From Chelativorans sp. J32 (GTDB taxonomy: Bacteria > Pseudomonadota > Alphaproteobacteria > Rhizobiales > Rhizobiaceae): DNA of 64,000 nt. Location: the NCBI RefSeq assembly GCF_000518985.1, contig NZ_JAEQ01000001.1, forward strand, positions 558,001 through 622,000. The letters run 5' to 3'. Numbering within the stretch: the stretch's first letter is position 1; every line of letters begins with the position of its first letter. Positions 24,496 to 49,266 of this stretch are shown here, piece after piece. Under the pieces are notes generated by a model, which saw nothing but the letters and a program-made list of their open reading frames with translations, was not told the origin of the DNA and searched no databases. The position numbers and the translations under genes were made by a program.

Positions 24496-24518
24496 CTAGC
24501 CGGTGAAGCTTGTGCGAA
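24496..24518 (-). promoter_or_regulatory. Shared flagellar promoter element, flhA copy
   Basis: Reads TTCGCACAAG-N8-GCTAG toward flhA and ends 24 bases before its start codon. Its first 18 bases are identical to the fliF copy. It gives flhA a promoter separate from the fliQ operon just upstream in transcription order. Function is inferred from six copies at matching positions. Confidence 0.65.
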
Positions 24519-24534
24519 GGCGGACAGGGCCGGA

Positions 24535-24801
24535 TTAGAACCCGTTCTCGATGCGCTGGAAGATTACAGTCGTGAAGGAGGAGATCTGCGCTCCGACAAA
24601 GGGACCGGAAAGCGCGACGATGAGCAGGATCGCGACGATCTTCGGCACGAAGGTGAGCGTGATTTCCTGCACCTGGGTGAGTGCCTGGACAAGCGCGATG
24701 CCGACGCCGACGACCATGGCCACGATCACTGCAGGACCGGAGGCCACAAGCACCGTCCAGATCGCATACTGGACGATGTCGAGTGCGTCGGCCTCGTTCA
24801 T
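24535..24801 (-). CDS. fliQ: Flagellar export protein FliQ
   Basis: 88 residues with two membrane helices (about 15-40 and 52-75) and the family pattern VVGVGIALVQALTQVQEITLTFVPK, interrupted only by loop residues. It is a small subunit of the FliPQR gate. It is the last gene of the flgE-flgK-flgL-flaF-flbT-flgD-fliQ unit, beginning 1 base after flgD. Confidence 0.93.
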   Translation of the reverse strand: MNEADALDIVQYAIWTVLVASGPAVIVAMVVGVGIALVQALTQVQEITLTFVPKIVAILLIVALSGPFVGAQISSFTTVIFQRIENGF

Positions 24802-24802
24802 T

Positions 24803-25192
24803 TCAGCGGATCGTCACGCCAGGACCGACAATCACTTCCTGCCCATTCTCCAGCTTCGCGACCACGCCGTCGCTATAAAGCTTCACTTCCTTGACGATGC
24901 CCGTCACCGTGCCATCGGCGGAGGTGATCTCCCGGCCCACGACGCCGCTCGCCTGGGAAAGCGAGGAAGCGGCAAGGATTTGCTCCAGTTTGGAATTCAT
25001 CTGCACCGATTGCTCCACCTGCGAGAAGGTGGCGAGCTGGGCCACATAGTCGGTGGAATCCATGGGGCTCGTCGGGTCCTGGTTCTTCATCTGGGCGACT
25101 AGCAGCCGAAGGAAGGACTGGTAATCCACCGTCTGCGGCGCGGCGGCCGTCTGCTGGTTCTGCGGAGCAGACGTTACGGTTGAAACATTCAT
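24803..25192 (-). CDS. flgD: Hook-capping protein FlgD (short form)
   Basis: 129 residues. The conserved N-terminal part is intact: DYQSFLRLLVAQMKNQDPTSP, then MDSTDYVAQLATFSQVEQ. The long C-terminal FlgD domains of enterobacteria are missing, and only a small beta-rich tail remains (IVKEVKLYSDG, VAKLENGQEVIVG). Short FlgD is typical of rhizobia, so this is not a truncation. It caps the growing hook and is co-transcribed with flgE. Confidence 0.9.
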   Translation of the reverse strand: MNVSTVTSAPQNQQTAAAPQTVDYQSFLRLLVAQMKNQDPTSPMDSTDYVAQLATFSQVEQSVQMNSKLEQILAASSLSQASGVVGREITSADGTVTGIVKEVKLYSDGVVAKLENGQEVIVGPGVTIR

Positions 25193-25194
25193 CC

Positions 25195-25632
25195 CTATTC
25201 TCCCACCGCCTTGGCGAATACCGGTTCGTCCTGCCGGCGCGGCCCATCGAGAATTTCCTCCTCGAATGGATAGAGCGCACGGATGGCTTTCAACGCCTCA
25301 TAGACCTCGCCTCCGCCGACCAGCGAGTCGATATGCTTCAGTCCCGCCAGGATTCGATCGTCACGAAAGGTGGAGAGAAGGTTGGCAAGCGTGTCGCGGA
25401 AGAGCCGGCGCGTCTTTTCCGTCCCTTCCGGCCCCATCAGCATCACCTGGACGATGAAATAGAGCTGCCGCAGCGGCGTGCGTGCGTCCTCAGGCTGGAG
25501 CACATGTTGCTGCAGAAGAAACTGCACGTCGTTCAGGAACTCAAGCGAGACCTTGCGGTCCACCTTGATGACCGCGCCGTTGACGTAGATCTTTTCACCG
25601 GCTTTGAGCGAGATCTTCAGCGTGTTTTTCAT
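25195..25632 (-). CDS. flbT: Flagellin synthesis regulator FlbT
   Basis: 145 residues. N-terminal LKISLKAGEKIYVNGAVIK is followed by FLNDVQFLLQQHVLQPEDA and LRQLYFIVQ, all typical of FlbT. In Caulobacter FlbT acts after transcription on the 5' leader of flagellin mRNA, and in Brucella it promotes flagellin production. The ATG at 25632 overlaps the flaF stop (ATGA); the frame extends upstream only inside flaF. A possible target is the structured sequence upstream of the second flagellin (39388-39436). Confidence 0.93.
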   Translation of the reverse strand: MKNTLKISLKAGEKIYVNGAVIKVDRKVSLEFLNDVQFLLQQHVLQPEDARTPLRQLYFIVQVMLMGPEGTEKTRRLFRDTLANLLSTFRDDRILAGLKHIDSLVGGGEVYEALKAIRALYPFEEEILDGPRRQDEPVFAKAVGE

Positions 25633-25976
25633 CGCAGGCCATCGCGTATGATCTGCGAGATTTCGATCAGCCCATCGAAATTCTCGGACCGCCCCTGACG
25701 AACCTCCTCGCCTTCGCGCAGGAGCCACAGCCCGATCGAGATGAGGTTGGCACGCAGCTCCTTTGGCAGCGCGTTGTCGGCATGGCCGAGATCCTCAATC
25801 AAGGACGTCCAGACGCGGTTCATGAACAGGATCGCTTCGATCGCCTCGCGCGACTGCGGTCCGGCGTCCCGCGCAGCCATCAGGAGGTCTATCGATCGCG
25901 TCAGCAACTGGCGTTCGCGATCCTTCGCATCAGCCACCGAGTCGGTCTGAACCTCGCTGTAGGAAAATTGGTACAT
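25629..25976 (-). CDS. flaF: Flagellin synthesis regulator FlaF
   Basis: 115 residues with the FlaF features YSEVQTDS near the N-terminus, LLTRSIDLLMAA, FMNRVWTSLIEDL and ANLISIGLWLLREGE. FlaF works with FlbT to balance flagellin synthesis in alphaproteobacteria. Its stop overlaps the flbT start by four bases, so the pair should be made at similar levels. It starts 21 bases after flgL. Confidence 0.92.
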   Translation of the reverse strand: MYQFSYSEVQTDSVADAKDRERQLLTRSIDLLMAARDAGPQSREAIEAILFMNRVWTSLIEDLGHADNALPKELRANLISIGLWLLREGEEVRQGRSENFDGLIEISQIIRDGLR

Positions 25977-47662: not shown

Positions 47663-48381
47663 CAGGAGCCCATGGCCTTGATCGCATCCTCCATAGAGGT
47701 GTCGCTATCGCGCATGAGCGCCGTCACCTGCTCGAAGGTGCGTTGGACCTGAATGAGCCGCATCATCTCGTTCACGGGATTGACGTTCGAATCTTCCAGG
47801 AAACCCTGGGCGACGCCGACATCCGGCTGGTCGACCACCGGCTGGGGCTGAGTACCCGGCAGGAAGCCGGAATTGCCGTAGCGGGTGGCATTCGGACCGG
47901 GGGTGAAGGAGAAGAGGCCGATCGCACCCACGGGCTGTCCGTTCTGGAGCAGCATTCCATCCGCGCCGGCCTCTGGTGGGCCGGCCAGCGGGTCGAGCAC
48001 CAATGGTGCCCCGCCAGCGTCCAGGACGGCGTGTCCCTCGAGCGTCACCAATTCGCCGGTCTCGCGCATGGTGAAGCGGCCGTCCCGCGTCATCATCGGG
48101 CCGGCCGGGGTCTCCACCGCGAACCATGCGTCACCCTGCACGGCGAAATCGAAGGGATTGCCGGTCTCCTGCAGTCCGCCGGCCCGGGTATCGTAGAAGT
48201 TGTTGCCGGCGGAAACAAAGCTCACCGACTCCTCCGAAAGGCCAGTCATCACATCGCTGAAGGTGACGCCGCCCGCCCGGAAGCCGACTGTACCGGCATT
48301 TGCGACATTGTCGGCGAGAGTCGCGAGCCGCCGCTCCAGCGCCATCTGGGAAGACAGCGCCACATAAAGTCCTGTTTGCAT
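47662..48381 (-). CDS. flgF: Proximal rod protein FlgF
   Basis: 239 residues with QMALERRLATLADNVANAGT near the N-terminus, FDFAVQGDAWFAVETPAGP, and the C-terminal GFLEDSNVNPVNEMMRLIQ followed by VQRTFEQV. The deviation from the FlgG C-terminal NSK pattern and the fliI neighbour support FlgF. It starts 2 bases after the DUF1217 gene. Confidence 0.9.
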   Translation of the reverse strand: MQTGLYVALSSQMALERRLATLADNVANAGTVGFRAGGVTFSDVMTGLSEESVSFVSAGNNFYDTRAGGLQETGNPFDFAVQGDAWFAVETPAGPMMTRDGRFTMRETGELVTLEGHAVLDAGGAPLVLDPLAGPPEAGADGMLLQNGQPVGAIGLFSFTPGPNATRYGNSGFLPGTQPQPVVDQPDVGVAQGFLEDSNVNPVNEMMRLIQVQRTFEQVTALMRDSDTSMEDAIKAMGS

Positions 48382-48383
48382 GG

Positions 48384-49160
48384 CTATTTTCTCATCTGCG
48401 CGATGGTGAGCAGGATGTCGGTGGAAATGCCGAATTCGGCAGGCTGGCTGAACAGCGCAGCGATCGAGCTCTGCGGGCTGTAGGAGGGGTTATCGATTTC
48501 CCACAGGGTCGTGAAACGCTTCAGGAACTCTTCCAGCTTCTGCGGATCTTTCAGATCCTCAAGATCCAGCCGCTCCTTGATCATCTCGACCTGTTTGTCG
48601 ATATCGGCTTGGGCCAGCGCTTCCGGGAAGCCAAGTGCAGTGCGAACGACCTGTGCAAGCGCGGGATCGGCCAGGATCTCGTAATAGGATTTCAGGCCGC
48701 CGGCCTTTCGCTGGAAATAGAGCGCAAGGCGCACGCCTTCGTTCTGCTTGCCAGCATCTTCCTCCAGAGTCTGCCGCAGATACTTCTCCACCGTCCCGGT
48801 GGTGGAGCTATGGAAAGTCGTCGTCTTGTCGCCGTAGCGGGCGAAATTGAAGGTGTCGACGAAGTCCTTATACCGCTTGTCGGTGAGCTTGTTTACGAAA
48901 CTTTCCTCATCGTCGAGGCCGCCTTCGAGCGCCTTCACCATGAACGCCTTCGCATAGGCCATGTCTTCCAGCCCATGGGCCTTCATCGCGTAGCGGAACA
49001 GCCGTTCGTCCGCGACGAATTCCTCGATGCTTTTCACCTTGCCGATGTTTTCGAGATAATAGGCCGTCTCGCGGCTCACCATCGGCTGTTGTTCAACACG
49101 GTCGATGGAGCGCCCGATATCGCGCACGATAAGCTGATAGCTCGTATAGGTGTTGATCAC
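48384..49160 (-). CDS. DUF1217-family flagellar protein
   Basis: 258 residues, soluble and helical, without a signal peptide. It has the DUF1217 pattern: an early ENIGKVKSIEEFVADERLF, then YAMKAHGLEDMAYAKAFMVK and a C-terminal FGISTDILLTIAQMRK. The family occurs next to flgF in many rhizobial flagellar loci, and its molecular function is not known. It is the first gene of its unit, with the shared element 30 bases upstream. Confidence 0.8.
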   Translation of the reverse strand: MINTYTSYQLIVRDIGRSIDRVEQQPMVSRETAYYLENIGKVKSIEEFVADERLFRYAMKAHGLEDMAYAKAFMVKALEGGLDDEESFVNKLTDKRYKDFVDTFNFARYGDKTTTFHSSTTGTVEKYLRQTLEEDAGKQNEGVRLALYFQRKAGGLKSYYEILADPALAQVVRTALGFPEALAQADIDKQVEMIKERLDLEDLKDPQKLEEFLKRFTTLWEIDNPSYSPQSSIAALFSQPAEFGISTDILLTIAQMRK

Positions 49161-49190
49161 GCGGAGCCTCCGGCCAGTCTGACGCGAAGG

Positions 49191-49213
49191 CTAGCGCGCT
49201 TGCCTTGCGCGAG
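49191..49213 (-). promoter_or_regulatory. Shared flagellar promoter element, DUF1217-flgF-fliI copy
   Basis: Reads CTCGCGCAAG-N8-GCTAG on the minus strand, ending 30 bases before the DUF1217 start codon. A plus-strand copy for motA lies 30 bases away, so the 140-base gap is a divergent promoter region with back-to-back elements. Confidence 0.62.
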
Positions 49214-49243
49214 GCTGTTCGCATCGCTTCAGCCCATTCAAGC

Positions 49244-49266
49244 CTCACGCAAGCCACGACAGGTAT
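49244..49266 (+). promoter_or_regulatory. Shared flagellar promoter element, motA copy
   Basis: Reads CTCACGCAAG-N8-GGTAT toward motA, ending 34 bases before its GTG. It is the most divergent copy (an A replaces G after the first C, and the downstream half is GGTAT), but the spacing and distance are the same as in the others. Confidence 0.45.

What the first reader, a model, noticed from the sequence alone, without database searches (positions are those of the whole stretch)
24496..49266. A 23-bp element precedes six flagellar transcription units at nearly fixed distance
Copies at 24496, 29874, 37342, 45506, 49191 (minus) and 49244 (plus) read CGCRCAAG-N8-YTA in the direction of flhA, flgE, fliF, flgB, the DUF1217 gene and motA. 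The gap to the start codon is 24, 31, 34, 32, 30 and 34 bases. They occur only at first genes of units, which defines the operon structure of the locus. It does not look like sigma-28, sigma-54 or ordinary housekeeping promoters. The likeliest reading is the FtcR/Rem-dependent class II promoter, with the 5' half as activator site and the TAG half as a -10-like element.
Basis: partly seen in the sequence, partly recalled or inferred. Interest (0 to 1): 0.78.

Follow-up and report, generated by a model that had tools for sequence, protein, structure and literature searches.

The report
Shared on-switch before flagellar operons
A short DNA signal, a tandem repeat fixed five bases ahead of a promoter's core, sits in front of each main flagellar operon here and in relatives that have the same flagellum regulator (FtcR/Rem); it is very probably where that regulator turns the operons on.

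Summary
The element is real and strongly conserved. The printed spacer is one base short: the copies read CGCRCAAG-N9-YTA (five of six; the motA copy has two mismatches). Those five are the only exact matches in the 4.70-Mb genome, a Chelativorans species. The stated gaps to the start codons are all correct. In named relatives the exact pattern precedes fliF in 68 of 72 and flhA in 30 of 36 loci, but ftcR, flgK and motB in 0 of 226. Where fliF is not joined to the motB unit, that unit has its own copy (11 of 11, against 0 of 86 when joined). In eight genomes with two flagellar systems, sites of 15 bits or more occur around the FtcR-type system (30) and not the other (0). Selecting on the 5' half alone, TA falls at one offset in 84% of 182 sites, with T at 24 in 85%: a -10 hexamer TANNNT. 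The consensus is AGCTTCG-CGCA-AGCTTCG-N5-TAGCCT, an 11-bp direct repeat as OmpR/PhoB-type proteins use. Best reading: the FtcR/Rem (LafR) box and -10 of class II flagellar promoters. FtcR binding is inferred, not shown; a published Brucella FtcR motif (TGTGGGCA) disagrees and is nearly absent from these regions.

The parts
24493..24521 (-). Element before flhA (box 24521-24504, -10 TAGTCT 24498-24493, predicted +1 near 24486)
   Evidence: exact match; 25.0 bits; flhA has a site in 59 of 67 distinct related upstream regions
29871..29899 (-). Element before flgE (box 29899-29882, -10 TAGCCT, predicted +1 near 29864), between ftcR and flgE
   Evidence: exact match; 28.1 bits; 102 of 108 distinct related regions
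37339..37367 (-). Element before fliF (box 37367-37350, -10 TAGGCT, predicted +1 near 37332); heads the presumed unit fliF-35044..35697-motB-motC-fliK-SLT-ftcR
   Evidence: exact match; 24.4 bits; exact pattern in 68 of 72 named related loci, site in 107 of 111 distinct regions of ftcR-bearing loci and 0 of 12 without ftcR
45503..45531 (-). Element before flgB (box 45531-45514, -10 TACCCT, predicted +1 near 45496); heads flgB...fliP
   Evidence: exact match; 23.8 bits; site in 21 of 21 related regions, exact pattern in 4 of 19
49188..49216 (-). Element before the DUF1217 gene (box 49216-49199, -10 TAGCCT, predicted +1 near 49181); heads DUF1217-flgF-fliI
   Evidence: exact match; 29.0 bits; site in 16 of 21 related regions
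49241..49269 (+). Divergent element before motA (box 49241-49258, hexamer TATTGC, predicted +1 near 49276); heads motA-fliM-fliN-fliG-flhB
21183..21212 (-). Weaker variant before flgJ; box present, -10 appears shifted by about 2 bases
   Evidence: 12.5 bits; variants before flgJ in 23 of 32 distinct regions
53522..53551 (+). Possible weak site inside the 3' end of flhB, about 90 bp before the next gene (53644-54078); may reflect FlhB coding constraint
   Evidence: 15.7 bits; 12 of 19 loci including S. meliloti
29917..30588 (-). ftcR, OmpR/PhoB-type orphan response regulator, proposed binder of the element
   Evidence: Trans_reg_C 60.5 bits, receiver domain below its cut-off; orthologs
22384..24471 (-). 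flhA (start moved to the second ATG)
   Evidence: FHIPEP
28559..29842 (-). flgE
   Evidence: FlgE_D2, Flg_bbr_C
35664..37307 (-). fliF
   Evidence: YscJ_FliF
45096..45473 (-). flgB, named from position and annotated relatives
   Evidence: synteny with annotated S. meliloti and Phyllobacterium loci; not scanned with Pfam
48384..49160 (-). DUF1217 gene
   Evidence: PF06748, 9e-58
49301..50188 (+). motA
   Evidence: MotA_N, MotA_ExbB

Best explanation
Each element is a complete activator-dependent promoter for a class II flagellar unit. Consensus, numbered so that the C of CGCRCAAG is 1: two 7-base half-sites AGCTTCG at -4..2 and 7..13, separated by CGCA (11-bp repeat), then five little-conserved bases, then TANNNT at 19..24 as the -10 hexamer read by the housekeeping sigma factor. 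In promoter coordinates the box covers about -35 to -18 and takes the place of a -35 hexamer, and transcription should start about 7 bases after T24, giving leaders of about 15-25 bases in this window. FtcR (Rem, LafR or ActR in relatives), whose receiver domain has no conserved phospho-acceptor, is proposed to bind the box as a head-to-tail dimer and recruit RNA polymerase, so that hook-basal-body, export and motor units switch on together. Because ftcR is the last gene of the presumed fliF unit, the box before fliF would also make FtcR activate its own gene. Shown here: the element, its rigid internal spacing, its place at unit starts, its association with ftcR-type flagella. Inferred: FtcR binding, sigma factor, start sites, co-transcription, self-activation.
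For: Only 5 exact matches in the whole genome, all in this locus. In 16 genomes of the genus a relaxed pattern has 65 matches, 62 in the flagellar cluster and 3 elsewhere (13 for the reversed control); none in the three genomes without ftcR, which also lack a full fliF. Exact pattern before fliF 68 of 72 and flhA 30 of 36, before ftcR 0 of 80, flgK 0 of 77, motB 0 of 69. It tracks unit starts after rearrangement: 11 of 11 against 0 of 86 loci. Order-wide, 72 genomes with ftcR hold 134 matches (control 51), 177 without hold 52 (control 103); outside the own family the difference has p = 1e-10, uncorrected for kinship. fliF of genomes without ftcR: 0 of 13. Dual-flagellum genomes: 30 sites of 15 bits or more at the FtcR-type system, 0 at the other; at 12 bits 35 against 3. 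TA at one offset in 84% of 182 sites chosen by the 5' half alone. Best internal symmetry is the 11-bp direct repeat. S. meliloti, where Rem is stated to activate class II genes directly (PMC9812332, passages), carries the element before fliF, flgE, flgB, motA and the motB unit and after fliQ, with a weaker one before DUF1217. An actR deletion in Azorhizobium lowers eight flagellar genes (PMC8639532, passages).
Against: No binding or start-site data were available. The published FtcR ChIP-seq motif in Brucella is TGTGGGCA with supporting gel shifts. Some first genes of ftcR-bearing loci lack a site of 10 bits: fliF 4 of 111, flhA 8 of 67, flgE 6 of 108, DUF1217 5 of 21, motA 1 of 22, flgJ 9 of 32. 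Outside the close relatives the exact pattern fits less often: in the more distant set fliF 22 of 56 (12-13 of these without ftcR), flhA 17 of 30, flgE 3 of 35, flgB 4 of 19, motA 4 of 21, DUF1217 12 of 21; in the named set flgE only 17 of 78. The matrix that recovers the rest was trained on many of the same loci, and the loci are dominated by close kin such as Mesorhizobium. Of 52 listed matches in ftcR-bearing genomes of other families only 20 lie within 60 kb of ftcR. Genomes with and without ftcR also differ in descent and flagellar type, so another regulator that travels with this flagellar type would fit the co-occurrence.
Confidence: 0.84

Rival explanations
1. The whole element is the recognition sequence of an alternative sigma factor dedicated to this flagellar type, with no separate activator box.
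For: Rigid spacing between the two halves and lack of a TTGACA-like hexamer (up to one mismatch) in the six promoters would also suit a single recogniser.
Against: Searches of the six promoters for sigma-54 and sigma-28 consensus (recalled) find no full match; the bare skeleton GGC[AG]-N8-GC occurs twice, in flgE and flgB, not aligned with the element. The 3' half is an ordinary TANNNT and the 5' part has an internal 11-bp direct repeat, which a sigma factor does not need. No sigma gene was seen among the 46 proteins scanned; not all genes of the cluster, nor the genome, were scanned.
Confidence: 0.07
2. The box is bound by another regulator that travels with this flagellar system, such as VisNR, CtrA or MucR, and FtcR acts elsewhere (for instance at TGTGGGCA).
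For: The published Brucella FtcR motif differs; VisNR and CtrA act on flagellar genes in relatives (passages).
Against: VisN is missing from 15 of 16 genus genomes at E 1e-15, the other a weak hit, while 13 have the element. Exact TTAA-N7-TTAA is absent from the 120 bases before each of the six genes. TGTGGGCA occurs in 2 of 355 first-gene regions and 0 of 140 ftcR regions. MucR was not tested.
Confidence: 0.07
3. It is an RNA or translation signal in the leader rather than a promoter.
For: Near-fixed distance to the start codon in the window.
Against: In relatives the distance from the element to the predicted start runs from 10 to 161 bases while the internal spacing does not move; in 11 loci the site of the motB unit lies 689-910 bases upstream of motB, in S. 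meliloti ahead of another gene.
Confidence: 0.02

Closest known systems
Rem of Sinorhizobium/Agrobacterium, LafR of Bradyrhizobium, ActR of Azorhizobium, FtcR of Brucella (flagellar activators)
   Same: Same regulator type and same class II kind of target; Rem and LafR are described as active without phosphorylation (PMC9812332, PMC8429497, PMC8639532, passages).
   Different: No DNA site is given for Rem, LafR or ActR in the passages read; the site reported for FtcR in Brucella (TGTGGGCA) is a different sequence.
PhoB and the pho box
   Same: [quoted passage not shown] 7-4-7 direct repeat with 11-bp period replacing the -35 (pho box geometry recalled; that it is a direct repeat is in PMC10294691, passages).
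   Different: Different sequence; the box ends 5 bases before the -10, closer than the pho box (about 10-11, recalled); FtcR has no conserved phospho-acceptor.
CtrA-dependent flagellar promoters of Caulobacter and Rhodobacter
   Same: OmpR-type regulator (recalled), repeat TTAA-N7-TTAA of 11-bp period, activating sites near -35 (PMC6180460, passages).
   Different: That repeat is not found here; CtrA has many non-flagellar targets (recalled), whereas this element is nearly confined to flagellar units in the genus.

Membership tests
FtcR/Rem-dependent class II flagellar promoter | Precedes hook-basal-body, export and motor units, not internal genes | tested here: met
   exceptions motC 1 of 102, motE 2 of 18, fliN 1 of 15
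FtcR/Rem-dependent class II flagellar promoter | Occurs with an ftcR/rem ortholog and its flagellar type | tested here: met
FtcR/Rem-dependent class II flagellar promoter | FtcR/Rem binds the element | not testable with these tools
   needs footprint or gel shift
FtcR/Rem-dependent class II flagellar promoter | Transcription starts at fixed distance after the hexamer | not testable with these tools
FtcR/Rem-dependent class II flagellar promoter | Agrees with the published FtcR motif TGTGGGCA | tested here: not met
   2 of 355 first-gene regions, 0 of 140 ftcR regions, 2 of 261 internal regions
Binding box of an OmpR/PhoB-type regulator | Direct repeat of about 11 bp | tested here: met
   best of the arrangements tried (2.6; best inverted 1.04); a first score had an inverted repeat slightly ahead (3.26 against 3.08); single window copies share 3-5 of 7 bases between halves
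Housekeeping-sigma promoter | -10 hexamer TANNNT at fixed place | tested here: met
   TA 84%, TANNNT 72% of 182 sites; 5 of 6 window copies
Housekeeping-sigma promoter | TTGACA-like -35 | tested here: not met
   expected for an activator-dependent promoter
Sigma-54 promoter | GG at -24, GC at -12 (consensus recalled) | tested here: not met
   no full match in six promoters; bare skeleton twice, off the element
Sigma-28 promoter | GCCGATAA-like -10 (recalled) | tested here: not met
CtrA promoter | TTAA-N7-TTAA | tested here: not met
   exact search
VisNR target | Element present only where VisN is | tested here: not met

The most novel reading that the evidence does not exclude
This is the missing DNA code of the FtcR/Rem/LafR family, one box shared across the order Hyphomicrobiales. 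It works by an unusual geometry: an Asp-less OmpR-type dimer bound from about -35 to -18, only five bases from the -10, so that it replaces sigma region 4 contacts on the promoter instead of standing upstream of them. The published Brucella motif would then be secondary or wrong.
Probability: 0.35. Interest if true: 0.72.

Novelty: new member of a known kind. Interest (0 to 1): 0.6.

Why it matters
FtcR/Rem is the stated activator of class II flagellar genes in rhizobia and agrobacteria, but the library searches made here showed no shared target sequence for it. A defined box and spacing would let flagellar regulons and operon limits be read from sequence in many Hyphomicrobiales, tell FtcR-type from other flagella in genomes with two systems, and give a direct test of a published, conflicting motif.

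Tried and rejected
Spacer of 8 as printed: no exact copies. Sigma-54 reading: TCGCACAAGCTTCGC lines up in length with the -24/-12 consensus, but the first G of GG is C and GC at -12 is not kept (by eye on the fliF and flhA lists). VisNR, CtrA and sigma-28: see rivals. Palindrome: a first similarity score put an inverted repeat centred at 3.5 slightly above the direct repeat (3.26 against 3.08); a second score over 7-column blocks put the 11-bp direct repeat first (2.6; best inverted 1.04). The repeat is therefore well supported, not conclusive.

Rows dropped or mixed: the flgF rows (15 of 76 and 72 of 97 with a site) were taken as cross-hits of flgE and set aside; overlaps were resolved and flgF has 0 of 21 and 0 of 22. 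Flagellin rows were left out of the counts and are. Upstream stretches under 60 bases were skipped. L227 (a partial FliF-like hit in G013) gave no usable fliF start. One search mixed 12 fliF rows without ftcR and some genomes held twice; one search separates the first and collapses identical upstream regions, and its figures are used here. Loci of close kin remain (many Mesorhizobium). In the dual-flagellum test six of eight genomes had other stretches in the training set, and at least two of the 30 sites (the motA sites of G251 and G268) were in it. There ftcR lies within 30 kb of the scored FlhA in seven of eight genomes; in G274 it is on another contig. One search lists only part of its matches; the nearness count (20 of 52) uses those I copied for ftcR-bearing genomes outside the own family.

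An earlier count gave 64/61 matches and about 14 controls; the recount from its output is 65, 62 and 13.

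Full report
What was claimed and what is there. The copies are at the stated places, but the spacer is nine bases. Five match CGCRCAAG-N9-YTA; the motA copy differs at two positions. The gaps to the start codons are exactly as stated, given the second ATG of flhA. In the own genome of 4.70 Mb the N9 pattern has five matches, all of them these, against 24 for the reversed pattern. In other genomes the bare pattern also matches by chance: 56 of 61 relatives have at least one.

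Surroundings. Pfam scans identify flhA, flgD, flbT, flgL (flagellin-type domains), flgK, flgE, an OmpR-type regulator (ftcR), an SLT protein, fliK, motB, fliF, two flagellins, fliP, fliL, flgH, fliI, flgF, DUF1217, motA, fliM, fliN, fliG and flhB and flgJ. Other names, and these assignments as a set, follow the annotated S. meliloti and Phyllobacterium loci. The six elements divide the locus into presumed units headed by flhA, flgE, fliF (ending with ftcR), flgB, DUF1217 and, divergently, motA.

Conservation. In a more distant set, which includes genomes without ftcR, the exact pattern is rarer: fliF 22 of 56, flhA 17 of 30, DUF1217 12 of 21, flgB 4 of 19, motA 4 of 21, flgE 3 of 35; ftcR 0 of 60, flgK 0 of 32, motB 0 of 27, fliP 0 of 23, fliI 0 of 20, flgF 0 of 21. 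With a matrix trained on such regions, distinct upstream regions of ftcR-bearing loci have a site of 10 bits or more in fliF 107 of 111, flhA 59 of 67, flgE 102 of 108, flgB 21 of 21, DUF1217 16 of 21, motA 21 of 22. Genes inside units have none, except motC 1 of 102, motE 2 of 18 and fliN 1 of 15. Three further groups appear: flgJ 23 of 32, the gene after flhB 12 of 19, and one flagellin 27 of 116. Shuffled first-gene regions gave 0 of 1840 at 8 bits or more with an earlier matrix.

A natural rearrangement test. Where fliF lies directly before the motB unit, no site of 10 bits is found within 1 kb of motB (0 of 86 loci). Where fliF is elsewhere, as in S. meliloti, a strong site (27-35 bits) heads the motB unit in 11 of 11. 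The element follows the start of the unit, not a particular gene.

Anatomy. Choosing sites only by the 5' half, 182 non-redundant sites show TA at one offset (84%; at most 4% at any other offset from 9 to 33) and T at position 24 (85%), the hexamer TANNNT. Upstream, A at -4 is 87% conserved although it was not selected. The consensus is AGCTTCG-CGCA-AGCTTCG-CCGCC-TAGCCT. The 11-bp direct repeat scores best, although an earlier score had an inverted repeat slightly ahead, and single window copies share only 3-5 of 7 bases between halves. No TTGACA, full sigma-54, sigma-28 or CtrA sequence was found before the six genes; the bare sigma-54 skeleton occurs twice, off the element.

Which protein. 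In the genus, 13 of 16 genomes have ftcR and the same 13 have relaxed matches; 62 of 65 matches lie in the flagellar cluster, with 13 for the reversed control. The three without ftcR have no full fliF, so they show only that the element leaves with the whole system. More telling, 13 genomes that have fliF but no ftcR at E 1e-40 show no site before fliF (0 of 13). Of 249 genomes of the order, 72 with ftcR have 134 relaxed matches against 51 control matches, 177 without have 52 against 103; in ftcR-bearing genomes of other families 20 of 52 listed matches lie within 60 kb of ftcR, the rest elsewhere. Best of all, eight genomes carry both an FtcR-type system (FlhA 67-70% identical to the window's; ftcR within 30 kb in seven of eight) and another (46-49%). 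In eight 20-kb stretches each, the first has 30 sites of 15 bits or more and the second none; at 12 bits 35 against 3, where single-base shuffles exceed 12 bits in a quarter of stretches. VisN is absent from the genus at E 1e-15 apart from one weak hit. Papers state that Rem is Asp-less, active without phosphorylation and activates class II genes directly (PMC9812332, passages), and that LafR governs the lateral but not the polar flagellum of Bradyrhizobium (PMC8429497, passages). In the alignment of 20 FtcR proteins the place of the usual phospho-acceptor holds R, S, E or Q (by eye).

A conflict. ChIP-seq of FtcR in Brucella melitensis gave TGTGGGCA in 118 of 363 peaks, with gel shifts (PMC9456535, passages). 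That sequence is in 2 of 355 first-gene regions, 0 of 140 ftcR regions and 2 of 261 internal ones here. Either Brucella differs or that motif is not the flagellar one.

How it most likely works. FtcR binds the repeat as a head-to-tail dimer over about -35 to -18 and recruits housekeeping RNA polymerase to the -10; starts lie about 7 bases after T24. Since ftcR ends the presumed fliF unit, self-activation is likely. Binding, start sites, co-transcription and self-activation are inferences.

Print status. Paper searches for FtcR, Rem, LafR, their binding sites and the sequence itself listed no description of this element that I saw, from listings and passages only. The primary FtcR (2007) and Rem (2006) papers are not held, so earlier description is possible.

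Noticed in passing
flagellin upstream regions among L050-L143 (28 loci, mostly Mesorhizobium), about 120-180 bp before the gene: A variant box, mostly CGCRCAAC/T with TTAAC at the -10 place, precedes a flagellin gene at long distance, suggesting a long leader.
   Followed up: partly
window 53522-53551 and L258 14955 (minus): A matrix hit inside the last codons of flhB before the next gene; seen in 12 of 19 loci, but it codes for a conserved peptide, so coding constraint is not excluded.
   Followed up: partly
window 29917-30588: FtcR's receiver domain falls below Pfam's cut-off and has no conserved phospho-acceptor Asp.
   Followed up: partly
G012, G013, G014: Three of 16 Chelativorans genomes lack ftcR and a full fliF, probably non-flagellated.
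   Followed up: no
L258 23619-24782: An ISRm16 transposase gene lies between the fliI-side genes and flgB in S. meliloti Ak57; the flgB element lies between it and flgB.
   Followed up: no
L259: The flagellar cluster of Phyllobacterium zundukense from flgB to past flgJ, with its elements, is on a 990-kb plasmid record.
   Followed up: no
window 49188-49269: Divergent DUF1217 and motA elements are back-to-back, 24 bases apart; 16-35 bases in 14 of 14 loci examined.
   Followed up: partly
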